Positions 2,015 through 8,461 of a stretch of DNA of 64,000 nucleotides are shown here, piece after piece; position 1 is the stretch's first letter; every line of letters starts with the position of its first letter. The position numbers and the translations under genes are program-made. Below the pieces are notes generated by a model. The model did not search any database. It saw only the letters and a list, made by a program, of their open reading frames with translations, and was not told the DNA's origin. Location of the stretch: assembly GCF_028622115.1 (NCBI RefSeq), contig NZ_CP097263.1:434001-498000 (forward strand), in the 5' to 3' direction. This stretch comes from Kutzneria chonburiensis (GTDB lineage: Bacteria; Actinomycetota; Actinomycetes; Mycobacteriales; Pseudonocardiaceae).

Positions 2015-3846
2015 GCACCACCGCCTCCGCGACGACGCCGCTGGTCCAGCCGCCACGCTGGGCGCTGTTGCAGCGCGAGCTGTTCGCGTTGCTGGACCAG
2101 GGTTGGCGGCGGTTCGAGGAGCTGTACTGCGCCTCGGACGGCTCGCTGGTCTACGCCGGCCGCACCTTCGGCCGTGACGGCGTCGACGACTTCTACGAGC
2201 CGTTCTTCAACTGGCCCATGCTCTATCTGCTCGGCGGGGCCGATGACCTGCTCGACGCGTGCAAGCGGCACTGGCACGGCGTGACCGCGCAGCTGACCGA
2301 GCGCGGCCTGCTGACCAATGAGTTCGAGGACGGCTACGACTGGTTCCACCAGGGCGAGTCGCTGCTGTTCTTCTACACCCTCTGCGCGGCCGATCCTGAG
2401 TATTTCCGTGACAGGGCACTGAGATTCGCCGACCTGTTCCTGCCGGACTCGCCGGTGCACAACTACGACGGTCGGCGTCGGATGATGCGGGCACCGCACG
2501 TCGGCGCTCTCGGTCCGCGGCCGGGGCTCGGCGAGGACCAGCCGTTCTCGGCGTCCAACACCGGAATGCGGAAGTACGGCCTGCCGTTGCGGGACGTGCG
2601 GGGCATTCTCGACTGGGACGATCTCGCGCAACCGCTGCTGGCGCACCGCATGGCCGACGCGATGAACGCCCGTCTCGGCGTCGGCGACGTGCCGTTGAAC
2701 CTGGCCAGCACGTCGTTGGCGACCAATGCCTGGCTGTACGACCATGATCCCCGGTACTCCGGCTTCGTCAAGTCCTATGTGGACAAGTGGGCGGGCAGGA
2801 CCGTGGACGGTCTGCTGCCCGACAACGTGGGGCCACGGGGCGAGGTCGGCGAGATGCACGGCGGCCGGTGGTACGGCGGCCACTACGGCTGGACCTGGCC
2901 GCACGGGCTGTACAGCGTGCTGGCCCCGGCGTTGATCGGCGCTTCGAACGCGACCGTGGTCAGCGGCAAGGACCGGCCACTTTCCCTGCCACGGGACATG
3001 ATCAAGGCGATCTTGGGGTACGCGCGGCATGCGGCGATGGATCCCGACGACGCCACGTTCTTCGACCACTGGCAGGAGCGGCTGGGCGACGGCGTCCATG
3101 ACGAGCTGCTGCTGGTGCCGTATCGGCGTGACGAGAAGGGCTGGTTCGACTTCCAGCCGCTGCCGCCGGCCTACCTGGCCTGGCTGTGGTGGCTGACCCG
3201 CAGTGTCGAGGACCGCCGCCTGATCGAGCGTATCGCCGCCGGCTCCGGCTACGAATGGCCGACCGTCAGGGATTTCCGTGAGAAGGAGGAAGCCGGTCAC
3301 GAGCCGCCGTGGCTGACGTATCTGCTCGGCGACAACCCGGACTGGCCCGAGGAAGCTCTGGAGATGGCGATCCGCCAGGTGCGTGTGCGGCTGCGGCTGA
3401 TGGAGGAGCATCCGACACCGCCGCCGGACGACAACATCCACTGGTGGCAGGAGCTCAACCCGGTGGTCACCGAGGTGTTGACCCAGCTCATCGCCGGCGC
3501 GCCGCAGATGCTGTACAACGGCGGGCTGCCGTACAGCCAGCTCCGCTGGACCGACGCCCTGCGTAATCGGCCCGGCCTGCCCGAGGACGTTGCTGCCCTG
3601 GTCGAGCAGCTCGACGACTCGACCGTCACCGTGCAGGTGCTCAATCTCGGGGCCGCCCAACAACTTCTGCGCCTGACCGGCGGCGGCTACGGCGAACATC
3701 CGTTCACCGAGCTGACGGCCGACGGCGTGACCATGCCCGTCGACCAATCCCTGCTGGTGGACCTGCCGCCGCGCACCCGTATCCGCCTGCGGCTGCGGTT
3801 CCAGCGGTTCGGCCGGCGACCCGCCCATCAACCGAGAGGACTGTGA
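2011..3846 (+). CDS. Uncharacterised 611-residue protein, probable alpha/alpha toroid (glycosidase-like)
   Basis: I do not recognise a named family with confidence. The protein has no signal peptide and many evenly spaced aromatic helices (FYEPFFNWPMLYLLGG, GYDWFHQGESLLFFYTL, GGHYGWTWPHGLYSVL), the pattern of six-hairpin or alpha/alpha-toroid glycosidases and lyases. Acidic residues lie beside several tryptophans (DGYDWFHQGE), which could serve as catalytic or sugar-binding residues. The last ~90 residues are beta-rich, like the C-terminal sandwich of such enzymes. It sits between permeases and an RraA-like gene with overlapping or zero-gap junctions, so it probably acts in the cytoplasm on the imported compound. 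A glycoside hydrolase, isomerase or lyase are all possible. Confidence 0.6.
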   Translation: MSTTASATTPLVQPPRWALLQRELFALLDQGWRRFEELYCASDGSLVYAGRTFGRDGVDDFYEPFFNWPMLYLLGGADDLLDACKRHWHGVTAQLTERGLLTNEFEDGYDWFHQGESLLFFYTLCAADPEYFRDRALRFADLFLPDSPVHNYDGRRRMMRAPHVGALGPRPGLGEDQPFSASNTGMRKYGLPLRDVRGILDWDDLAQPLLAHRMADAMNARLGVGDVPLNLASTSLATNAWLYDHDPRYSGFVKSYVDKWAGRTVDGLLPDNVGPRGEVGEMHGGRWYGGHYGWTWPHGLYSVLAPALIGASNATVVSGKDRPLSLPRDMIKAILGYARHAAMDPDDATFFDHWQERLGDGVHDELLLVPYRRDEKGWFDFQPLPPAYLAWLWWLTRSVEDRRLIERIAAGSGYEWPTVRDFREKEEAGHEPPWLTYLLGDNPDWPEEALEMAIRQVRVRLRLMEEHPTPPPDDNIHWWQELNPVVTEVLTQLIAGAPQMLYNGGLPYSQLRWTDALRNRPGLPEDVAALVEQLDDSTVTVQVLNLGAAQQLLRLTGGGYGEHPFTELTADGVTMPVDQSLLVDLPPRTRIRLRLRFQRFGRRPAHQPRGL

Positions 3847-4611
3847 ATGAGCTGGCCCCTGCCGGTGCGCGGCCCGGCTTACACCCGCGCCGACGCCGAG
3901 ATCATGGCCGCGCTGCAACCGGTCAGTAGTGCCACGGCGTGCGCCCAGCTGCACAAGGACGGCATCACGCGCACGTTCATCGAGGGCCCGAAGCCGTTGA
4001 GCCTCGGGCAGCGGATCGTCGGCTCCAGCGTGACATTGCAGTTCATGCCGCAGCGGGAGGACATCGCCAGCGGCGTGGCCCAGGAGTACGTGGAGCGGAC
4101 CACCGCGCTGTGGGCCGTGCTGGAGACCGTGCAGCCGGGCGATGTCCTTGTCGTGCAGGCGTATGGCAGCGCCTATACGGGATGCCTCGGCGACATGCTC
4201 GTGCGCTACTTCAAGCGCCGCGGCGGGGCCGGGATCATCGTCGACGGCCGTATCCGCGATGCGCCTCGGGTGCGCAAGCTCGGCGTGCCCATCTGGTGCA
4301 CGGGATCGACGCCGCACTATGCCTCGCAGTCGGAGCTTTTCCCGTGGGCGTATGACGTTCCCGTCGCTGTCGGCGGTGTCCTGTGCCTGCCCGGTGACGT
4401 TGTCGTCGCCGATGACGACGGGGCCGTGGTGGTGCCCCAGCGCAGCGCGGCCGATCTCGCGCGCAGCGCCGGTGATCACGAGGAGTGGGAGGTGTTCAGC
4501 CGCATGAGGATCGACCAGGGGGCGACCCTCAGCGACTACTACCCGCTCACCTCCGACAGCCGCGCCGAATACGAGGCGTGGCGGGAGGCCCGTGACACCA
4601 TGGGGACATGA
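3847..4611 (+). CDS. RraA-like / HMG-CHA aldolase-family protein
   Basis: A 254-residue member of the RraA/4-carboxy-4-hydroxy-2-oxoadipate aldolase superfamily. The family core is visible: GDVLVVQAYG, then GDMLVRYFKRRGG, then IIVDGRIRDAP, whose Arg-Asp pair positions substrate and divalent metal in aldolase members, and finally a V-PGDVVVADDDGAVVVP segment. Classical RraA binds RNase E and is about 160 residues; this longer form with the metal-binding Asp fits the metabolic aldolase or decarboxylase branch better. It starts directly after the stop of the preceding gene and overlaps the nucleoside hydrolase start by 4 nt. A role in breaking down a carbon skeleton from the imported compound is inferred. 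Confidence 0.8.
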   Translation: MSWPLPVRGPAYTRADAEIMAALQPVSSATACAQLHKDGITRTFIEGPKPLSLGQRIVGSSVTLQFMPQREDIASGVAQEYVERTTALWAVLETVQPGDVLVVQAYGSAYTGCLGDMLVRYFKRRGGAGIIVDGRIRDAPRVRKLGVPIWCTGSTPHYASQSELFPWAYDVPVAVGGVLCLPGDVVVADDDGAVVVPQRSAADLARSAGDHEEWEVFSRMRIDQGATLSDYYPLTSDSRAEYEAWREARDTMGT

Positions 4612-5504
4612 CGACACGGGTGATCCTCGACTGCGATCCCGGGCATGACGACGCGTTGGCCATCCTGCTGGCCGCCCGGCGACTCGACCTGCGGGCGATC
4701 ACCACCGTGGCCGGCAACCAGACGCTGGCCAAGACCACGATGAACGCCCGTCGGATGTGCACGGTCGCTGGTATCACCGACGTGCCCATCGCGGCCGGCG
4801 CCGACCGGCCGTTGGTCCAGGAACCGTTGTACGCCGGGGAGATCCACGGCGACAGCGGCCTGGACGGGCCCAACTTCCCGCCGCCCACCGTGGACGTCGA
4901 CCCGCGCGGGGCGTATGAACTCGCCTCCGATGTACTCACCGAGCCCACCACGATCATCGCCACCGGCCCGCTGACCACTGTGGCCGGGTTGGTGGGGCAC
5001 AAGAACATCGAGCGCATCGTGCTCATGGGCGGCTCGACCGGCCGCGGCAACATGGCACCGTTGGCCGAGTTCAACATCCTGGCCGACCCGGAGGCGGCGG
5101 ACGTGGTCTTCCGGTCTGGAGTGCCGATCACCATGTGCGGGCTGGACGTCACCCACCAGGCCTTGGCCACGCCGGATGTGCTCGCCCGCATCGCCGCGAT
5201 CGGCACGCCGTTGGCCCAGGTGTGCCATGACCTGCTGACCTACTTCAGCGATACCTACCGGACGTATTTCGGCTTCGAGTCCCCGCCCGTCCACGACCCG
5301 GTGGCCGTGGCGGCGGTGATCGACCCGACGATCCTTGCGGTACGGCCGTTGAATGTGGAGATCGAGCTGACCGGCACCTACACGCGCGGCGCGACCGTCG
5401 TCGACGTGGACCGGGTCACCGGCCGCAAGCCCAACGCCATGGTCGCCACTGGATTGGACGCCGCGAGGTTCTGGGACCTGATGATCGGGGCGATGGGGGG
5501 ATAG
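4608..5504 (+). CDS. Nucleoside hydrolase, IunH/inosine-uridine family
   Basis: A 298-residue enzyme expected to hydrolyse the N-glycosidic bond of ribonucleosides, releasing base and ribose, in the cytoplasm. The calcium- and ribose-binding signature DCDPGHDDA is at residues 8-16, with Asp8, Asp10, Asp14 and Asp15 in the family pattern. A mid-protein segment EFNILADPEAA and the late motif VHDPVAVAAV supply the other conserved ligands. Length matches the family. The ATG overlaps the preceding stop (ATGA), so it is the last gene of the uptake operon. Its presence suggests that the imported ligand contains, or resembles, a ribosyl group. Base specificity cannot be read from sequence. Confidence 0.93.
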   Translation: MTTRVILDCDPGHDDALAILLAARRLDLRAITTVAGNQTLAKTTMNARRMCTVAGITDVPIAAGADRPLVQEPLYAGEIHGDSGLDGPNFPPPTVDVDPRGAYELASDVLTEPTTIIATGPLTTVAGLVGHKNIERIVLMGGSTGRGNMAPLAEFNILADPEAADVVFRSGVPITMCGLDVTHQALATPDVLARIAAIGTPLAQVCHDLLTYFSDTYRTYFGFESPPVHDPVAVAAVIDPTILAVRPLNVEIELTGTYTRGATVVDVDRVTGRKPNAMVATGLDAARFWDLMIGAMGG

Positions 5505-5555
5505 GTGAGGGTTGGGTGCGCGTGCCGCGCGGTTTCCCGGGGGTTCTTCGGTTTG

Positions 5556-5674
5556 TGGGTCGATTTGGTGTGGAGCCTCTGCGCGATGGCCCAAGGGCTA
5601 AAAGCGGGCAGGACGAGCCTGCCCTTGGCCTGTCAATTGTACGCCATCGCGCCCCTCCACACAAAATCGACCCA
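5556..5674 (+). repeat. Palindromic element, left copy, downstream of HNH gene
   Basis: A ~119-bp self-complementary element occupying most of the gap after the nucleoside hydrolase gene. The outer stem TGGGTCGATTT (5556-5566) pairs with AAATCGACCCA (5664-5674). After one mismatch, GTGTGGAG (5568-5575) pairs with CTCCACAC (5655-5662), and GCGCGATGGC (5581-5590) pairs with GCCATCGCGC (5643-5652). The 52-nt centre holds a smaller hairpin GGGCAGG-ACGAG-CCTGCCC (5606-5624). A second copy in opposite orientation lies at 7050-7173; the two centres are identical over 52 nt, while the outer stems differ by paired changes. There is no uridine run, so it is not a typical intrinsic terminator. The remaining 5675-5792 bases show no recognisable gene. 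Confidence 0.85.
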
Positions 5675-5792
5675 ATTCGCGGAGTTGGCGATCGGTGTGT
5701 GAAGGGAATGGCGGTGGCTGGGTTTTGACTCCCGCTGTGCACCCTTTTGGTGGTGGCTGTGGGAGGTCCTTTTCCCGGTGTCCGTTCCCCGG

Positions 5793-6935
5793 TTAGTGCC
5801 GCAGGGGGCGGGTGGTGTGGTGGCGGCCGGCCGGTGTGATCCAGTGGGTGGTGCCGTCTGAATCCTGGGTCACTGTGTAGTTGTCGTGTTTGCGGTGGTG
5901 GTGCCAGGTGCAGAGCCCTTGCAGGTTGGTCGCCTCTGTGGGGCCCTCTGGCCACGGGGTGATGTGGTCGTGCTCCTGGATGGGCAAGGTGCAGCCGGGT
6001 GCGGTGCAGGTCCCGCCGGCCCGAGCAACGGACGTCTCCTTCATCAGCGCCGTGGGTCGGTAGGTGTCGGTGCTGATCGCGGAGATCTGCTGGTACTCAT
6101 CCAGCAGCAGTCCCCGAAAGGGGCCATGCATGGCCAGTTCGCGGGCCGCCTCGGCCGCGATCGGCCCATAACCGGCAAGCTGACCGGGGTCGTTCGTGAG
6201 GCCGAGCAGGGTCTCCATGGAGATGGTGACGAAGGTGCGGACGTTCCAGTTGGTGTGCTTGCCCCGCAGGCGGTCCCACAGCACGTCCGAGCGTTTCTCG
6301 TCGGTGGTGCGCTCGTCCTTCGGCAGCGACTTCGCGTCGGCGCAGATCTGTTGGAACAGCTGGTGGGCCTCAGTGGCGGGGAGGATCCAGGTCAGTTGGG
6401 CCATGCCGTCGGGCAAGGGAGAGAGCCTGACCTGCCGATCGTTTTTGGCTTTGTGGCAGCGCTGCTCATAACCATCCGGATCGGCCTTCGCGACCAGCGC
6501 GGTGGCCTTGCGGCACACCTGCGTCCGAGTCATACCGGCGGCCTGTTCGGCCAGGGCCTGGTCGACTTCGGCGACCTGCGCCGGGTCCGAGAGGTGGCGG
6601 GTGCGTTCCCACACGGCGGCGAAGCGGGCGAGGTCGATCTCTCCCCGGCGGAACCGCTCGGCCAGCGCGGGATGGGTCTCCAGGGCGGCGGCGATCTCTT
6701 GTGAGCGGGCCAGGGCCGGCTCTGACACCTTCGTGGCCATCGCCAATTCGGTGAGGTCGTCGATGTGGTTGAGGGCCTCATGTTCGGCCCATTCACACAC
6801 GGCCCGCACCTTCCGGGCCACCCCCACGAAATTGACCAAATCTTCTTGGGTGAGGCTCGCTGGATCCACACCCACCACCAGATCGAACATGGCCCCGGTG
6901 GGTTCCATGCTCTCGATGTCGCGGGTGAGTTCCAT
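5793..6935 (-). CDS. DUF222 (13E12 repeat family) HNH endonuclease
   Basis: A 380-residue protein with the DUF222 domain in the N-terminal three quarters and an HNH nuclease module at about residues 310-350. The latter shows paired cysteines (CTAPGC), then EHDHITPW with the catalytic histidine, a conserved Asn in TNLQGLC, and the final WHHHRKH. Such proteins are abundant, multicopy and mobile-looking in mycobacteria and relatives; the DNA target is unknown. I chose the ATG at 6935 rather than the TTG at 6959, because the latter would lie inside a candidate SOS box (6950-6965). The gene stands alone, flanked at ~115 bp on both sides by inverted copies of a palindromic element, which suggests a mobile unit. 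Confidence 0.88.
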   Translation of the reverse strand: MELTRDIESMEPTGAMFDLVVGVDPASLTQEDLVNFVGVARKVRAVCEWAEHEALNHIDDLTELAMATKVSEPALARSQEIAAALETHPALAERFRRGEIDLARFAAVWERTRHLSDPAQVAEVDQALAEQAAGMTRTQVCRKATALVAKADPDGYEQRCHKAKNDRQVRLSPLPDGMAQLTWILPATEAHQLFQQICADAKSLPKDERTTDEKRSDVLWDRLRGKHTNWNVRTFVTISMETLLGLTNDPGQLAGYGPIAAEAARELAMHGPFRGLLLDEYQQISAISTDTYRPTALMKETSVARAGGTCTAPGCTLPIQEHDHITPWPEGPTEATNLQGLCTWHHHRKHDNYTVTQDSDGTTHWITPAGRHHTTRPLRH

Positions 6936-6949
6936 ACCTTTGAGAATAC

Positions 6950-6965
6950 TCGAACACAAGATCGA
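6950..6965 (-). promoter_or_regulatory. Candidate LexA/SOS box upstream of the HNH gene
   Basis: On the minus strand the sequence reads TCGATC-TTGT-GTTCGA, differing at one position from the mycobacterial-type SOS box TCGAAC-N4-GTTCGA. It ends 14 bp before the proposed ATG of the DUF222-HNH gene. Members of the 13E12 repeat family in Mycobacterium tuberculosis have been reported as LexA targets, so damage-inducible expression is plausible. A small hairpin with stem CCTAACGGG/CCCGTCAGG (one mismatch) lies just beyond, at 6975-6996. Confidence 0.6.
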
Positions 6966-7049
6966 ACACGAATCCCTAACGGGTGAATCCCGTCAGGCAG
7001 AAAGGCTTTTCTTTCCTCCCGCCACACCACAACACGGCAACTCGTACCA

Positions 7050-7173
7050 GTCGCGTGGATTTTGTGTGGAGGGGCGCGATGGCGTACAATTGACAGGCCA
7101 AGGGCAGGCTCGTCCTGCCCGCTTTTAGCCCTTGGGCCATCGCGCAGATGGCTCCACACCAAATCCACGCGAC
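7050..7173 (-). repeat. Palindromic element, right copy, upstream of HNH gene
   Basis: The second copy of the element at 5556-5674, in opposite orientation. The outer stem GTCGCGTGGATTT (7050-7062) pairs perfectly with AAATCCACGCGAC (7161-7173). The next stems, GTGTGGAG (7064-7071) with CTCCACAC (7152-7159) and GCGCGATGGC (7074-7083) with GCCATCGCGC (7136-7145), are identical to those of the left copy, as is the 52-nt centre. Only one internal-loop base is inserted relative to the left copy. The outer stem differs at three pairs, each change matched on the other side. The rest of 6966-7205 contains no recognisable gene. Confidence 0.85.
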
Positions 7174-7205
7174 CACACCGAATAAATCCCACCGACAAGC
7201 CGCAC

Positions 7206-7985
7206 CTATTCGCTGAGCAGGCCTTTTCGAAGGTCCACCAGCGTCCGGGCCAACAGCCGCGACACGTGCATCTGCGAGATGCCGATCCGGTCGGCGATCT
7301 GCGTCTGCGTGAGGTTGCCGAAGAACCGCAGCAGGATGATGGTCCGCTCCCGCTCCGGCAGCTGCTGCAACAGCGGTTGCAGGGCCTCCCGGTTCTCCAC
7401 GCCCATCAGCTCGGGGTCCTCGTCGCCGAGAGCGTCCCCGAGCGACACCGACTTGTCCGTGCCGACGAGCAGCTCGTCCAGCGACGAACTGCGGTAGGCG
7501 TTGGACGCCTCCAAGCCCTCGTACACCTCGTCCTTGGTGATACCGAGATGAGTGGCCAGCTCGCTGGGCGTCGGCGCGCGGCCGAGGTGCTGGGACAGCT
7601 CGTTGGTGGCGCCGGTGATGGCCAGGTGCAGCTCCTTGAGCCGCCGAGGCACCCGCACCGACCAACTGGTGTCCCGGAAGTGCCGGCGCACCTCGCCCAT
7701 GATGGTGGGCACGGCGAAGGACAGGAAGTCGCTGCCCCGCGTCGGGTCGAAGCGGTCGATGGCGCTGATCAGGCCGACCGTCGCCACCTGCACGAGGTCG
7801 TCGTGCGGCTCGCCGCGCTGCCCGAAGCGCCGCGCGATGTGCTGGGCCACCGGCAGGAACTCGGTCACCAGGCGGTCCCGCAGCTCGGTCCGGCGGGGAT
7901 CCGCAGCGTCCAGGCCGGCCAGCTCGGCCAGCACGGGATCCAGGTGCGCGTAGTCGTTGGTAGCGCGTTCAGAAGACTGTGTCAC
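7206..7985 (-). CDS. SigF/SigB-family alternative sigma factor
   Basis: A 259-residue group 3 sigma factor that directs RNA polymerase to stress promoters. Region 2 contains DDLVQVATVGLISAIDRFDP and the following segment GSDFLSFAVPTIMGEVRRHFRD; region 3 follows with APTPSELATHLGI; region 4 ends with the helix-turn-helix TQTQIADRIGISQMHVSRLL. The GTG start at 7985 was chosen because it overlaps the RsbW stop as GTGA and leaves the usual family length; the longer frame upstream is a shadow. It is the last gene of a four-gene module with its anti-sigma factor, an antagonist and an ANTAR protein. A promoter matching the SigF consensus precedes the module, suggesting autoregulation. Confidence 0.92.
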   Translation of the reverse strand: MTQSSERATNDYAHLDPVLAELAGLDAADPRRTELRDRLVTEFLPVAQHIARRFGQRGEPHDDLVQVATVGLISAIDRFDPTRGSDFLSFAVPTIMGEVRRHFRDTSWSVRVPRRLKELHLAITGATNELSQHLGRAPTPSELATHLGITKDEVYEGLEASNAYRSSSLDELLVGTDKSVSLGDALGDEDPELMGVENREALQPLLQQLPERERTIILLRFFGNLTQTQIADRIGISQMHVSRLLARTLVDLRKGLLSE

Positions 7986-8461
7986 AGGCCCACCACGTCG
8001 TCGGCCCGCTTCTTCACCAGGTCGAACCGCAGCACATGCCCGCCACCGGGGCCGGGGACGACCCACGTGTTCACCGAGTCGGTGAGCGCGGTCAGCACCC
8101 GCCAGCCGAAGCTCTCCCGGCTCGGCGGCACGACCGTGCTGGTCGCCGACTCGGCCGAGAAGTGGATCTGCTCGCCCTCCACGGAGAACCGGCACACCAG
8201 GTCCCCGTCGGGCACCGACCGGGAGATCAGCTCTGAGCAGGCCTCGTCAACGGCCATCTTCAGGTCGGAGATCGCGTCCAACGTGAAGTCGGCCCGCATC
8301 GCCAGGTCGGCGGCGACCGCCCGGACCACGGACAGGTGCGCGGGCGAGGCCGCGATGCGCACCTCCACGTCGGCCCCGGACGCGGGCTTGTCGCTGGTGG
8401 TGGTGCTGGGCTCGTGCTCGCTCACTGTCACCTCGGTGCCGTCGACGTCTACCTCGCCCAT
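7982..8461 (-). CDS. RsbW-type anti-sigma factor (serine kinase fold)
   Basis: A 159-residue GHKL ATPase-fold protein expected to bind and hold the SigF-type factor and to phosphorylate its STAS-domain antagonist. The fold is visible in residues ~35-155: a beta strand VRIAASPAHLSVVRAVAA, then the N-box helix ISDLKMAVDEACSELI with the Mg-coordinating residues, and a C-terminal strand before the end. The first ~35 residues are a low-complexity acidic/serine tail. Start ATG 8461 is preferred over an in-frame TTG 12 nt upstream because GGGGGGA lies just before it. Its stop overlaps the sigma gene start, and the antagonist gene lies 16 bp upstream, so stoichiometric expression is likely. Confidence 0.9.
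   Translation of the reverse strand: MGEVDVDGTEVTVSEHEPSTTTSDKPASGADVEVRIAASPAHLSVVRAVAADLAMRADFTLDAISDLKMAVDEACSELISRSVPDGDLVCRFSVEGEQIHFSAESATSTVVPPSRESFGWRVLTALTDSVNTWVVPGPGGGHVLRFDLVKKRADDVVGL

What the first reader, a model, noticed from the sequence alone, without database searches (positions are those of the whole stretch)
5556..7173. HNH endonuclease gene framed by inverted ~120-bp palindromes: candidate mobile unit
The sequence shows the DUF222-HNH gene about 115 bp from each of two large palindromic elements in opposite orientation (5556-5674 and 7050-7173). Their cores are identical over 52 nt and the inner stems match. The layout resembles a nuclease gene bounded by its own hairpin substrates, as RAYT transposases are by REP sequences, but the protein family is different and no such HNH-palindrome unit is known to me. 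It may be a composite mobile element or a self-recognised DNA hairpin system.
Basis: partly seen in the sequence, partly recalled or inferred. Interest (0 to 1): 0.8.

Follow-up and report, generated by a model that had tools for sequence, protein, structure and literature searches.

The report
Nuclease gene between paired DNA hairpins
A gene for an uncharacterised DNA-cutting protein sits between two large facing hairpin sequences, and this whole unit is repeated many times in Kutzneria genomes, so it is probably a mobile DNA element whose only gene is this nuclease, built like the known REP-transposase units but with a different kind of enzyme.

Summary
Two ~120-nt palindromes face each other around a 388-aa DUF222/HNH gene. 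The unit is a dispersed repeat: 15 complete copies plus one diverged copy in this 10.4-Mb genome (genus Kutzneria). Related genes occur in five other genus genomes, paired palindromes in three. At the window locus it lies between convergent genes; five of five relatives with both genes lack it. In five Kutzneria genomes a model finds 121 strong palindromes: 117 lie within 900 bp of a gene of this family, and all 49 pairs face each other. Stems are kept by compensatory changes (13 of 39 pairs). The 15 gene copies are intact, under purifying selection (dN/dS 0.086), and recombine. In other genera the palindrome family was mostly alone in the loci taken (38 of 40), sometimes upstream of or around DUF222/HNH genes. 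This is the layout of RAYT transposases with REPs, but the protein is no RAYT. Best reading: an HNH-encoded mobile element with palindromic ends, plus REP-like solo copies. That the protein cuts or moves palindromes is inferred. No clear target duplication was found; exact ends are uncertain.

The parts
5538..7190 (.). Mobile unit, minimal estimate (about 1.65 kb): left terminal motif, left palindrome, DUF222/HNH gene, right palindrome, right terminal motif
   Evidence: 15 copies at 90-100% over about this span in the own genome; ends read by eye from flank alignments; uncertain by several bases, more on the left
5509..5537 (.). Left subterminal G-rich stretch shared by most copies of this genome
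   Evidence: not seen in the same form beside the units of other genomes printed
5556..5674 (+). Left (3'-side) palindrome; outer stem GGGTCGATTT, inner stem GCGCGATGGC
7050..7173 (-). Right (5'-side, upstream of the gene) palindrome, same family, facing the left one; outer stem GTCGCGTGGATTT
5793..6959 (-). DUF222/HNH endonuclease-like gene, 388 aa (TTG start at 6959; an ATG lies at 6935)
   Evidence: HNH residues kept in alignment A1
4608..5504 (+). Left flanking gene, nucleoside hydrolase; its end marks the empty site
7206..8195 (-). Right flanking gene, sigma-70 family factor, convergent with the left gene (open frame; start uncertain)

Best explanation
It is a transposable unit whose only gene is a DUF222/HNH protein and whose ends are facing ~120-nt palindromes, organised like a REPtron (a RAYT gene between inverted REPs). 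Shown: dispersal, empty site, linkage of strong palindromes to the gene in five Kutzneria genomes, compensated stems, purifying selection, recombination between copies. Inferred: the HNH protein recognises the palindrome (as duplex or extruded hairpin) and nicks or cuts at the ends; new copies enter intergenic sites without a clear target duplication; solo palindromes in other genera are non-autonomous derivatives; breaks made at occupied sites are repaired from sister copies, which would explain why copies within one genome stay alike.
For: Fifteen complete units plus one diverged copy in the own genome. Family gene matches at E 1e-40 in 6 of 7 genus genomes: G000 16, G001 8, G002 3, G003 19 (17 genes), G005 10, G006 27, G004 0. 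Window site empty in 5 of 5 relatives with both flanks. 121 palindromes above 110 bits in five genomes: 117 within 900 bp of a family gene; of the other four, one is at a contig edge and three lie beside gene fragments; 49 of 49 pairs face each other. 97.2% of stem cells paired, 13 of 39 pairs compensated, slid controls 41-47%. Between the 15 copies the palindrome windows are 96-99.8% identical against about 91% for the gene and 80-87% for the left spacer (right spacer 94%); dN/dS 0.086 over 105 pairs; recombination signal, 0 of 500 permutations as low. Inverted repeats also bound 19 of 60 DUF222 loci of other genera.
Against: No target-site duplication at the stem tips; wider flanks show only a slight excess of shared words. 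Of 71 family genes in five genomes, 19 have one palindrome and 3 none, several with intact frames. In G005 copies have at most an upstream palindrome and homology ends at or near the stop codon, and one weaker G005 palindrome (C4:547255) is near none of its ten family genes. In other genera 38 of 40 palindrome loci taken lack the gene, and several of those genomes gave no relative of the protein at E 1e-45 (G035, which has one, was missed too). 41 of 60 DUF222 loci of other genera and 20 of 20 of two further families show no such inverted repeats. No transposition was observed.
Confidence: 0.58

Rival explanations
1. The palindromes are an older, independent repeat family moved by some other enzyme. 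The DUF222/HNH gene is a free-standing homing endonuclease that uses the palindromes as its site and spreads mainly by break-induced gene conversion, so the unit is a composite of repeat and nuclease.
For: Palindromes without the gene in several genera. Strong recombination between copies. Copies of one genome group together although 4 of 15 own-genome sites are also occupied in other species. DUF222 repeats of M. tuberculosis (REP13E12) are among the most converted loci, 87 events (PMC13061034, passages).
Against: No solo palindromes in the own genome; of 121 strong ones in five genomes only one contig-edge case and three beside gene fragments stand apart. Homing needs homology at the target, but flanks of the own copies are unrelated beyond the unit and the window site was empty. 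All 49 pairs face each other.
Confidence: 0.27
2. The gene family has a host function. The upstream palindrome is its operator or regulatory hairpin, and copies arose by ordinary duplication and conversion without self-mobility.
For: Strong purifying selection. The upstream palindrome is kept more often than the downstream one, 17 against 1 among one-palindrome genes (some of the 17 are truncations). It lies upstream on the gene's strand in 6 of 6 G005 genes with a palindrome and 9 of 9 upstream-only loci of three other genomes.
Against: Does not explain the facing downstream copy in 49 genes, boundaries near the palindromes, dispersal to unrelated sites, or solo copies.
Confidence: 0.12
3. 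A local inverted duplication or a pair of transcription terminators.
For: The unit lies between two convergent genes.
Against: 15 dispersed copies, no Rfam match in the window, conservation across species.
Confidence: 0.02

Closest known systems
RAYT / REPtron (REP-associated tyrosine transposase with REPs)
   Same: One gene between two facing palindromes; dispersed solo palindromes of the same family in some genomes; compensated stems
   Different: DUF222/HNH protein with no Y1/HUH family match; palindromes of about 120-150 nt instead of 20-40 (the latter from PMC3733652, abstract in the listing); 8-27 gene matches in five of seven Kutzneria genomes
TIRtron (RAYT-like gene between long terminal inverted repeats)
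   Same: Long inverted repeats bound one gene; such repeats also occur as families (PMC3733652, passages)
   Different: Different protein family; repeats here are themselves large palindromes
REP13E12 / '13E12 repeat family' of mycobacteria
   Same: Multi-copy DUF222/HNH genes (PMC10589994, passages); hot spot of gene conversion (PMC13061034, passages)
   Different: 20 DUF222 loci of two other families examined here had no bounding inverted repeats of 45 bits; REP13E12 itself was not examined; no palindromic ends mentioned in the passages read
IS200/IS605 elements
   Same: Hairpin ends; no clear target duplication (IS200/IS605 features recalled)
   Different: No Y1 transposase match; ends are inverted copies of each other
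Free-standing HNH homing endonucleases (recalled)
   Same: HNH nuclease, recombination between copies
   Different: Copies sit at unrelated sites and carry their own palindromic ends

Membership tests
DUF222 (PF02720) / HNH proteins | Profile match over the cut-off | tested here: met
   76.5 bits, cut-off 24.4; HNH PHROGs at residues about 306-367
RAYT / REPtron | Gene flanked by two inverted palindromes | tested here: met
   Met by the window unit and by 49 of 71 family genes in five genomes, all facing; definition from PMC2817692 passages
RAYT / REPtron | Y1 (HUH) tyrosine transposase | tested here: not met
   Only DUF222 in Pfam and only HNH in PHROGs
RAYT / REPtron | Cognate palindromes dispersed in the same genome | tested here: inconclusive
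   None solo in the own genome; 38 of 40 loci taken in other genera lack the gene; G171 and G035 hold both forms
RAYT / REPtron | GTAG tag beside the palindrome | not tested
   Feature from PMC3733652 passages; flanks printed were not scored for it
Classical insertion sequence | Terminal inverted repeats and dispersed copies | tested here: met
Classical insertion sequence | Target-site duplication | tested here: inconclusive
   49 units: at the stem tip (offset up to 4) longest match 2 nt, below the shuffled mean; in 50-nt flanks longest shared word 4.14 on average against 3.95 shuffled, 1 of 40 shuffles as high, one unit with 9 nt; exact ends unknown
Classical insertion sequence | Known transposase | tested here: not met
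Homing endonuclease element | Cuts a defined site in an allele lacking it | not testable with these tools
   needs biochemistry

The most novel reading that the evidence does not exclude
DUF222/HNH proteins are a new class of prokaryotic transposase or recombinase. They act on 120-150-nt palindromes as ends, move their own gene, and in trans spread solo palindromes as a REP-like family across Pseudonocardiaceae: an HNH counterpart of the RAYT/REP system.
Probability: 0.35. Interest if true: 0.92.

Novelty: new variant of a known kind. Interest (0 to 1): 0.78.

Why it matters
DUF222 is a common actinobacterial family named as a domain of unknown function (149 of 296 genomes of the class matched at E 1e-25); no solved structure matched the profile convincingly. 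A consistent unit of gene plus palindrome gives it a concrete substrate to test. If the HNH protein moves the palindromes, it would be a kind of mobile-element enzyme outside the DDE, HUH, tyrosine and serine classes (classes recalled), and it would offer a mechanism for the conversion hot spots of the related REP13E12 repeats. It also adds a palindromic repeat family, found here in 10 of 46 genera sampled; Rfam matched nothing in the window.

Tried and rejected
Rejected: local inverted duplication (15 dispersed copies); known structured RNA (no Rfam hit in the window at gathering thresholds); RAYT membership (no Y1 family match); scattered repeats unrelated to the gene, as far as the strong palindromes of five Kutzneria genomes go.

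Tried without result: relatives in viral contigs (none); plasmids (7 records, all under 30% identity); solved structures (no convincing match); NCBIfam (none); orientation of neighbouring genes by a home-made codon score, which I judged too unreliable to count; an empty site in genus g8 for locus L230 (left flank not syntenic; the unit is shared by G205 and G261); precise boundaries from empty sites (flanking genes abut in G003, so no intergenic sequence is left to compare); whether shared sites between species are old insertions overwritten by conversion or repeated insertions at hot spots (intergenic stretches not alignable by eye); structure prediction (queue full; never run). Literature: PMC10589994, PMC13061034, PMC3733652 and PMC2817692 were seen only as passages found by terms; the rest only as search listings; Gordon 1999 is not held. 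No title or abstract describing DUF222 units with palindromic ends turned up in the listings; those searches cover open-licence papers only, and several listings were cut.

Full report
Observation. The two palindromes and the gene between them are real at the stated coordinates. Left: 5556-5674. Right: 7050-7173. They form an inverted repeat of 94 nt at 99% and each folds far better than shuffled sequence (z -7.6 and -8.7). The gene, 5793-6959 minus, encodes DUF222 and an HNH domain. Rfam has no match in the window at gathering thresholds.

The unit is a dispersed repeat. Searching the own genome with the left palindrome gave 33 matches. Searching with 2 kb gave 15 units at 90-100% identity over about 1.63-1.7 kb, plus a diverged copy (79%) with only the right palindrome. 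Flanks of the copies are otherwise unrelated apart from G-rich subterminal sequence. All 15 proteins have open frames and are 93-100% identical to the window protein.

Relatives. The one named relative found is Kutzneria sp. CA-103260. Its contig has the length of G006, which is 'same genus'; the genus name of the window rests on that. NCBI places Kutzneria in Pseudonocardiaceae, and I use that name for the handles' family f1. Family gene matches at E 1e-40 or better: G000 16, G001 8, G002 3, G003 19 (17 genes, two in two pieces), G004 0, G005 10, G006 27. Inverted repeats of 45 bits or more join the two flanks in 15 of 16 family genes of G000, 16 of 17 of G003, 14 of 25 of G006 (25 of 27 fetched), 6 of 8 of G001, 0 of 3 of G002, 0 of 10 of G005 and 0 of 5 other DUF222 genes of G000. 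Control flanks further out reached at most 37.4 bits.

Empty site. In the window the unit lies between a nucleoside hydrolase ending at 5504 and a sigma factor ending at 7206, convergent. In all five other genomes where both genes were found together (G001, G002, G003, G005, G006) the unit is absent. The genes abut in G003, are 63 and 112 nt apart in G005 and G002, and 719 and 591 nt apart in G001 and G006, where other sequence lies between them. For G004 (2 matches) only a right-flank match is listed.

Ends and target. Homology between copies stops near the outer tips of the palindromes, with a short conserved GGG[AT]TTnTT-like motif about 17-20 nt outside in many copies. A strict form of that motif was found within 32 nt of 46 of 115 palindromes, against 7 of 115 control windows further out; it was absent beside all 15 left ends of G000. 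No target duplication shows at the stem tips of 49 units. In 50-nt flanks the longest shared direct word averages 4.14 against 3.95 for shuffled partners (1 of 40 shuffles as high; one unit shares 9 nt), so a duplication at unknown exact ends is not excluded. In the copies of G000, G001 and G003 the left and right palindromes differ in their outer stems, each internally complementary.

Structure is under constraint. I aligned 50 palindromes: 116 were found by pattern, 93 distinct, 52 kept after thinning, of which I left out two (L299 left, L302 right). 97.2% of stem cells pair and 13 of 39 pairs show changes on both sides (172 cells against 59 in shuffles). Sliding the partner by 1-3 columns drops pairing to 41-47%. 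One measure, further pair types, was not above the shuffles (28 against 28.7). In the two long stems changes are nearly always on both sides, with few G-T pairs; I read this as a DNA-level palindrome rather than an RNA structure, but a dimer-bound duplex or intrastrand correction would look the same (inference).

Linkage to the gene. A covariance model run on 7 genus genomes finds 121 palindromes above 110 bits in five of them (G000, G001, G002, G003, G006). 117 lie within 900 bp of a family gene. Of the other four, one is at a contig edge and three lie beside gene fragments. Of 71 genes in these five genomes, 49 have two palindromes, 19 one and 3 none; all 49 pairs face each other. Among genes with one palindrome in the earlier pattern search, 17 keep the upstream one and 1 the downstream one. 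Some of the 17 are truncations: part of the left palindrome remains in L136 and L152. G005 is different: its palindromes match more weakly (17 matches at E 0.001, not listed), and one of those seen (C4:547255) lies near none of its ten family genes, so it may be a solo copy; I could not fetch it.

Evolution of copies. Across 15 own-genome copies dN is 0.027 and dS 0.315, ratio 0.086 (105 pairs). Site incompatibility is high and lower at short distance: statistic 0.648 against 0.681 permuted, 0 of 500 as low, 159 informative sites. I read this as conversion between copies; repeated mutation could add to it. The palindrome windows are more conserved (96-99.8%) than the gene (about 91%) or the left spacer (80-87%); the right spacer is at 94%. 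In the tree of 73 proteins (L150-L154, L174 and L187-L191 left out) the copies of G000, G001 and G005 form groups with full support, those of G006 one with weaker support (77/99), and those of G003 two. Yet four of the 15 own sites (L036, L038, L041, L044) are also occupied in other species, with flanks matching at 73-88%, on both sides for three and on the right side only for L038. Either units were overwritten by conversion or the same intergenic sites were hit again; I could not decide.

Beyond the genus. Of 60 DUF222 loci fetched from other genera of the family (one, L232, without a right flank), 19 are bounded by inverted repeats of 68 bits or more, in three further genera (g8, g27, g29). 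In G216 and G171 these ends are again strong palindromes, z -4.4 to -7.5; those of G205 and G261 range from -1.2 to -5.6; those of G034, G186 and G156 are mostly not. One search cut arms at 200 nt, which hid the palindromes of G093 that the model then found on both sides. The G171 palindrome repeats the Kutzneria layout: 10 pairs, one mismatch, 8 pairs, then an inner stem of at least 10 pairs. In G005, 6 of 10 genes have a related palindrome upstream only, on the gene's strand, and homology between copies ends at or near the stop codon, read by eye. The Kutzneria model also finds palindromes at 36 bits or more at 12 of 79 other DUF222 loci (L232 not given): both sides in three, upstream only and on the gene's strand in nine; two more loci have weaker matches (gene positions). 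None of 20 loci from two further families (f8, f32) had inverted repeats of 45 bits or model hits; the best was 35.9 bits.

Solo palindromes. The model hits 31 of 249 family genomes, 10 of 46 genera, with few candidates scored per genome. A fuller scan of eight gave 94, 30, 22, 17, 17, 11, 7 and 1 matches in G190, G171, G178, G035, G213, G084, G063 and G093 (matches on the opposite strand of the same palindrome may be counted in some). I took 40 such loci, chosen by me from ten genomes of six genera, with about 1.7-2 kb on each side; six are cut short by contig ends. 38 of 40 hold no DUF222 gene by a broad profile that recovered 30 of 30 control loci; the two that do are both in G035, of four taken there. 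So in the loci seen outside Kutzneria the palindrome is mostly a solo, REP- or MITE-like repeat.

Reading. [quoted passage not shown] REPtrons and TIRtrons in PMC3733652, passages). It works like that kind of system as far as anatomy goes, but it is not a member, because the protein is DUF222/HNH. I think the most likely mechanism is that the HNH protein acts on the palindromes as element ends, with frequent break-driven conversion between copies. The main rival is a homing nuclease living on an older palindrome family. DUF222 repeats are known to be multi-copy (REP13E12; PMC10589994, passages) and conversion-prone (PMC13061034, passages), so the multi-copy nature is not new. The palindromic ends, the tight linkage in five Kutzneria genomes and the solo family are new as far as my searches show.

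Noticed in passing
L325-L364 (genomes G035, G084, G135, G106, G145, G190, G213, G178, G171, G033): A dispersed ~125-150-nt palindrome family in other Pseudonocardiaceae genera, mostly solo; in G106, G213 and G190 complementarity continues into the flanks. Not compared with Rfam; one literature search.
   Followed up: partly
G005:C4:547255-547378: A palindrome of the family in the diverged Kutzneria genome that lies near none of its ten listed family genes; possible solo copy within the genus.
   Followed up: no
L136, L143, L155 (G003): Three units lie next to copies of one ~1.3-kb sequence that is 99.9-100% identical (inverted in L136), perhaps an insertion sequence at the unit's left end.
   Followed up: no
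L142 (G003), left palindrome 3489-3614: A subfamily-a gene carries a left palindrome with the loop of subfamily b: ends appear to be exchangeable between subfamilies.
   Followed up: no
L305 and L307 (G360): Two DUF222 genes 97.7% identical over roughly the open frame only: dispersal or conversion of a bare gene.
   Followed up: no
L032, L034, L037-L042, L044, L045 (own genome), just left of the unit: A C-run stretch (CCCGCCCGCCC type) precedes the left end in these copies; possible extra subterminal part or hitch-hiking sequence.
   Followed up: no
L187-L191 (own genome): Further DUF222 genes of another subfamily in this genome without bounding inverted repeats.
   Followed up: partly
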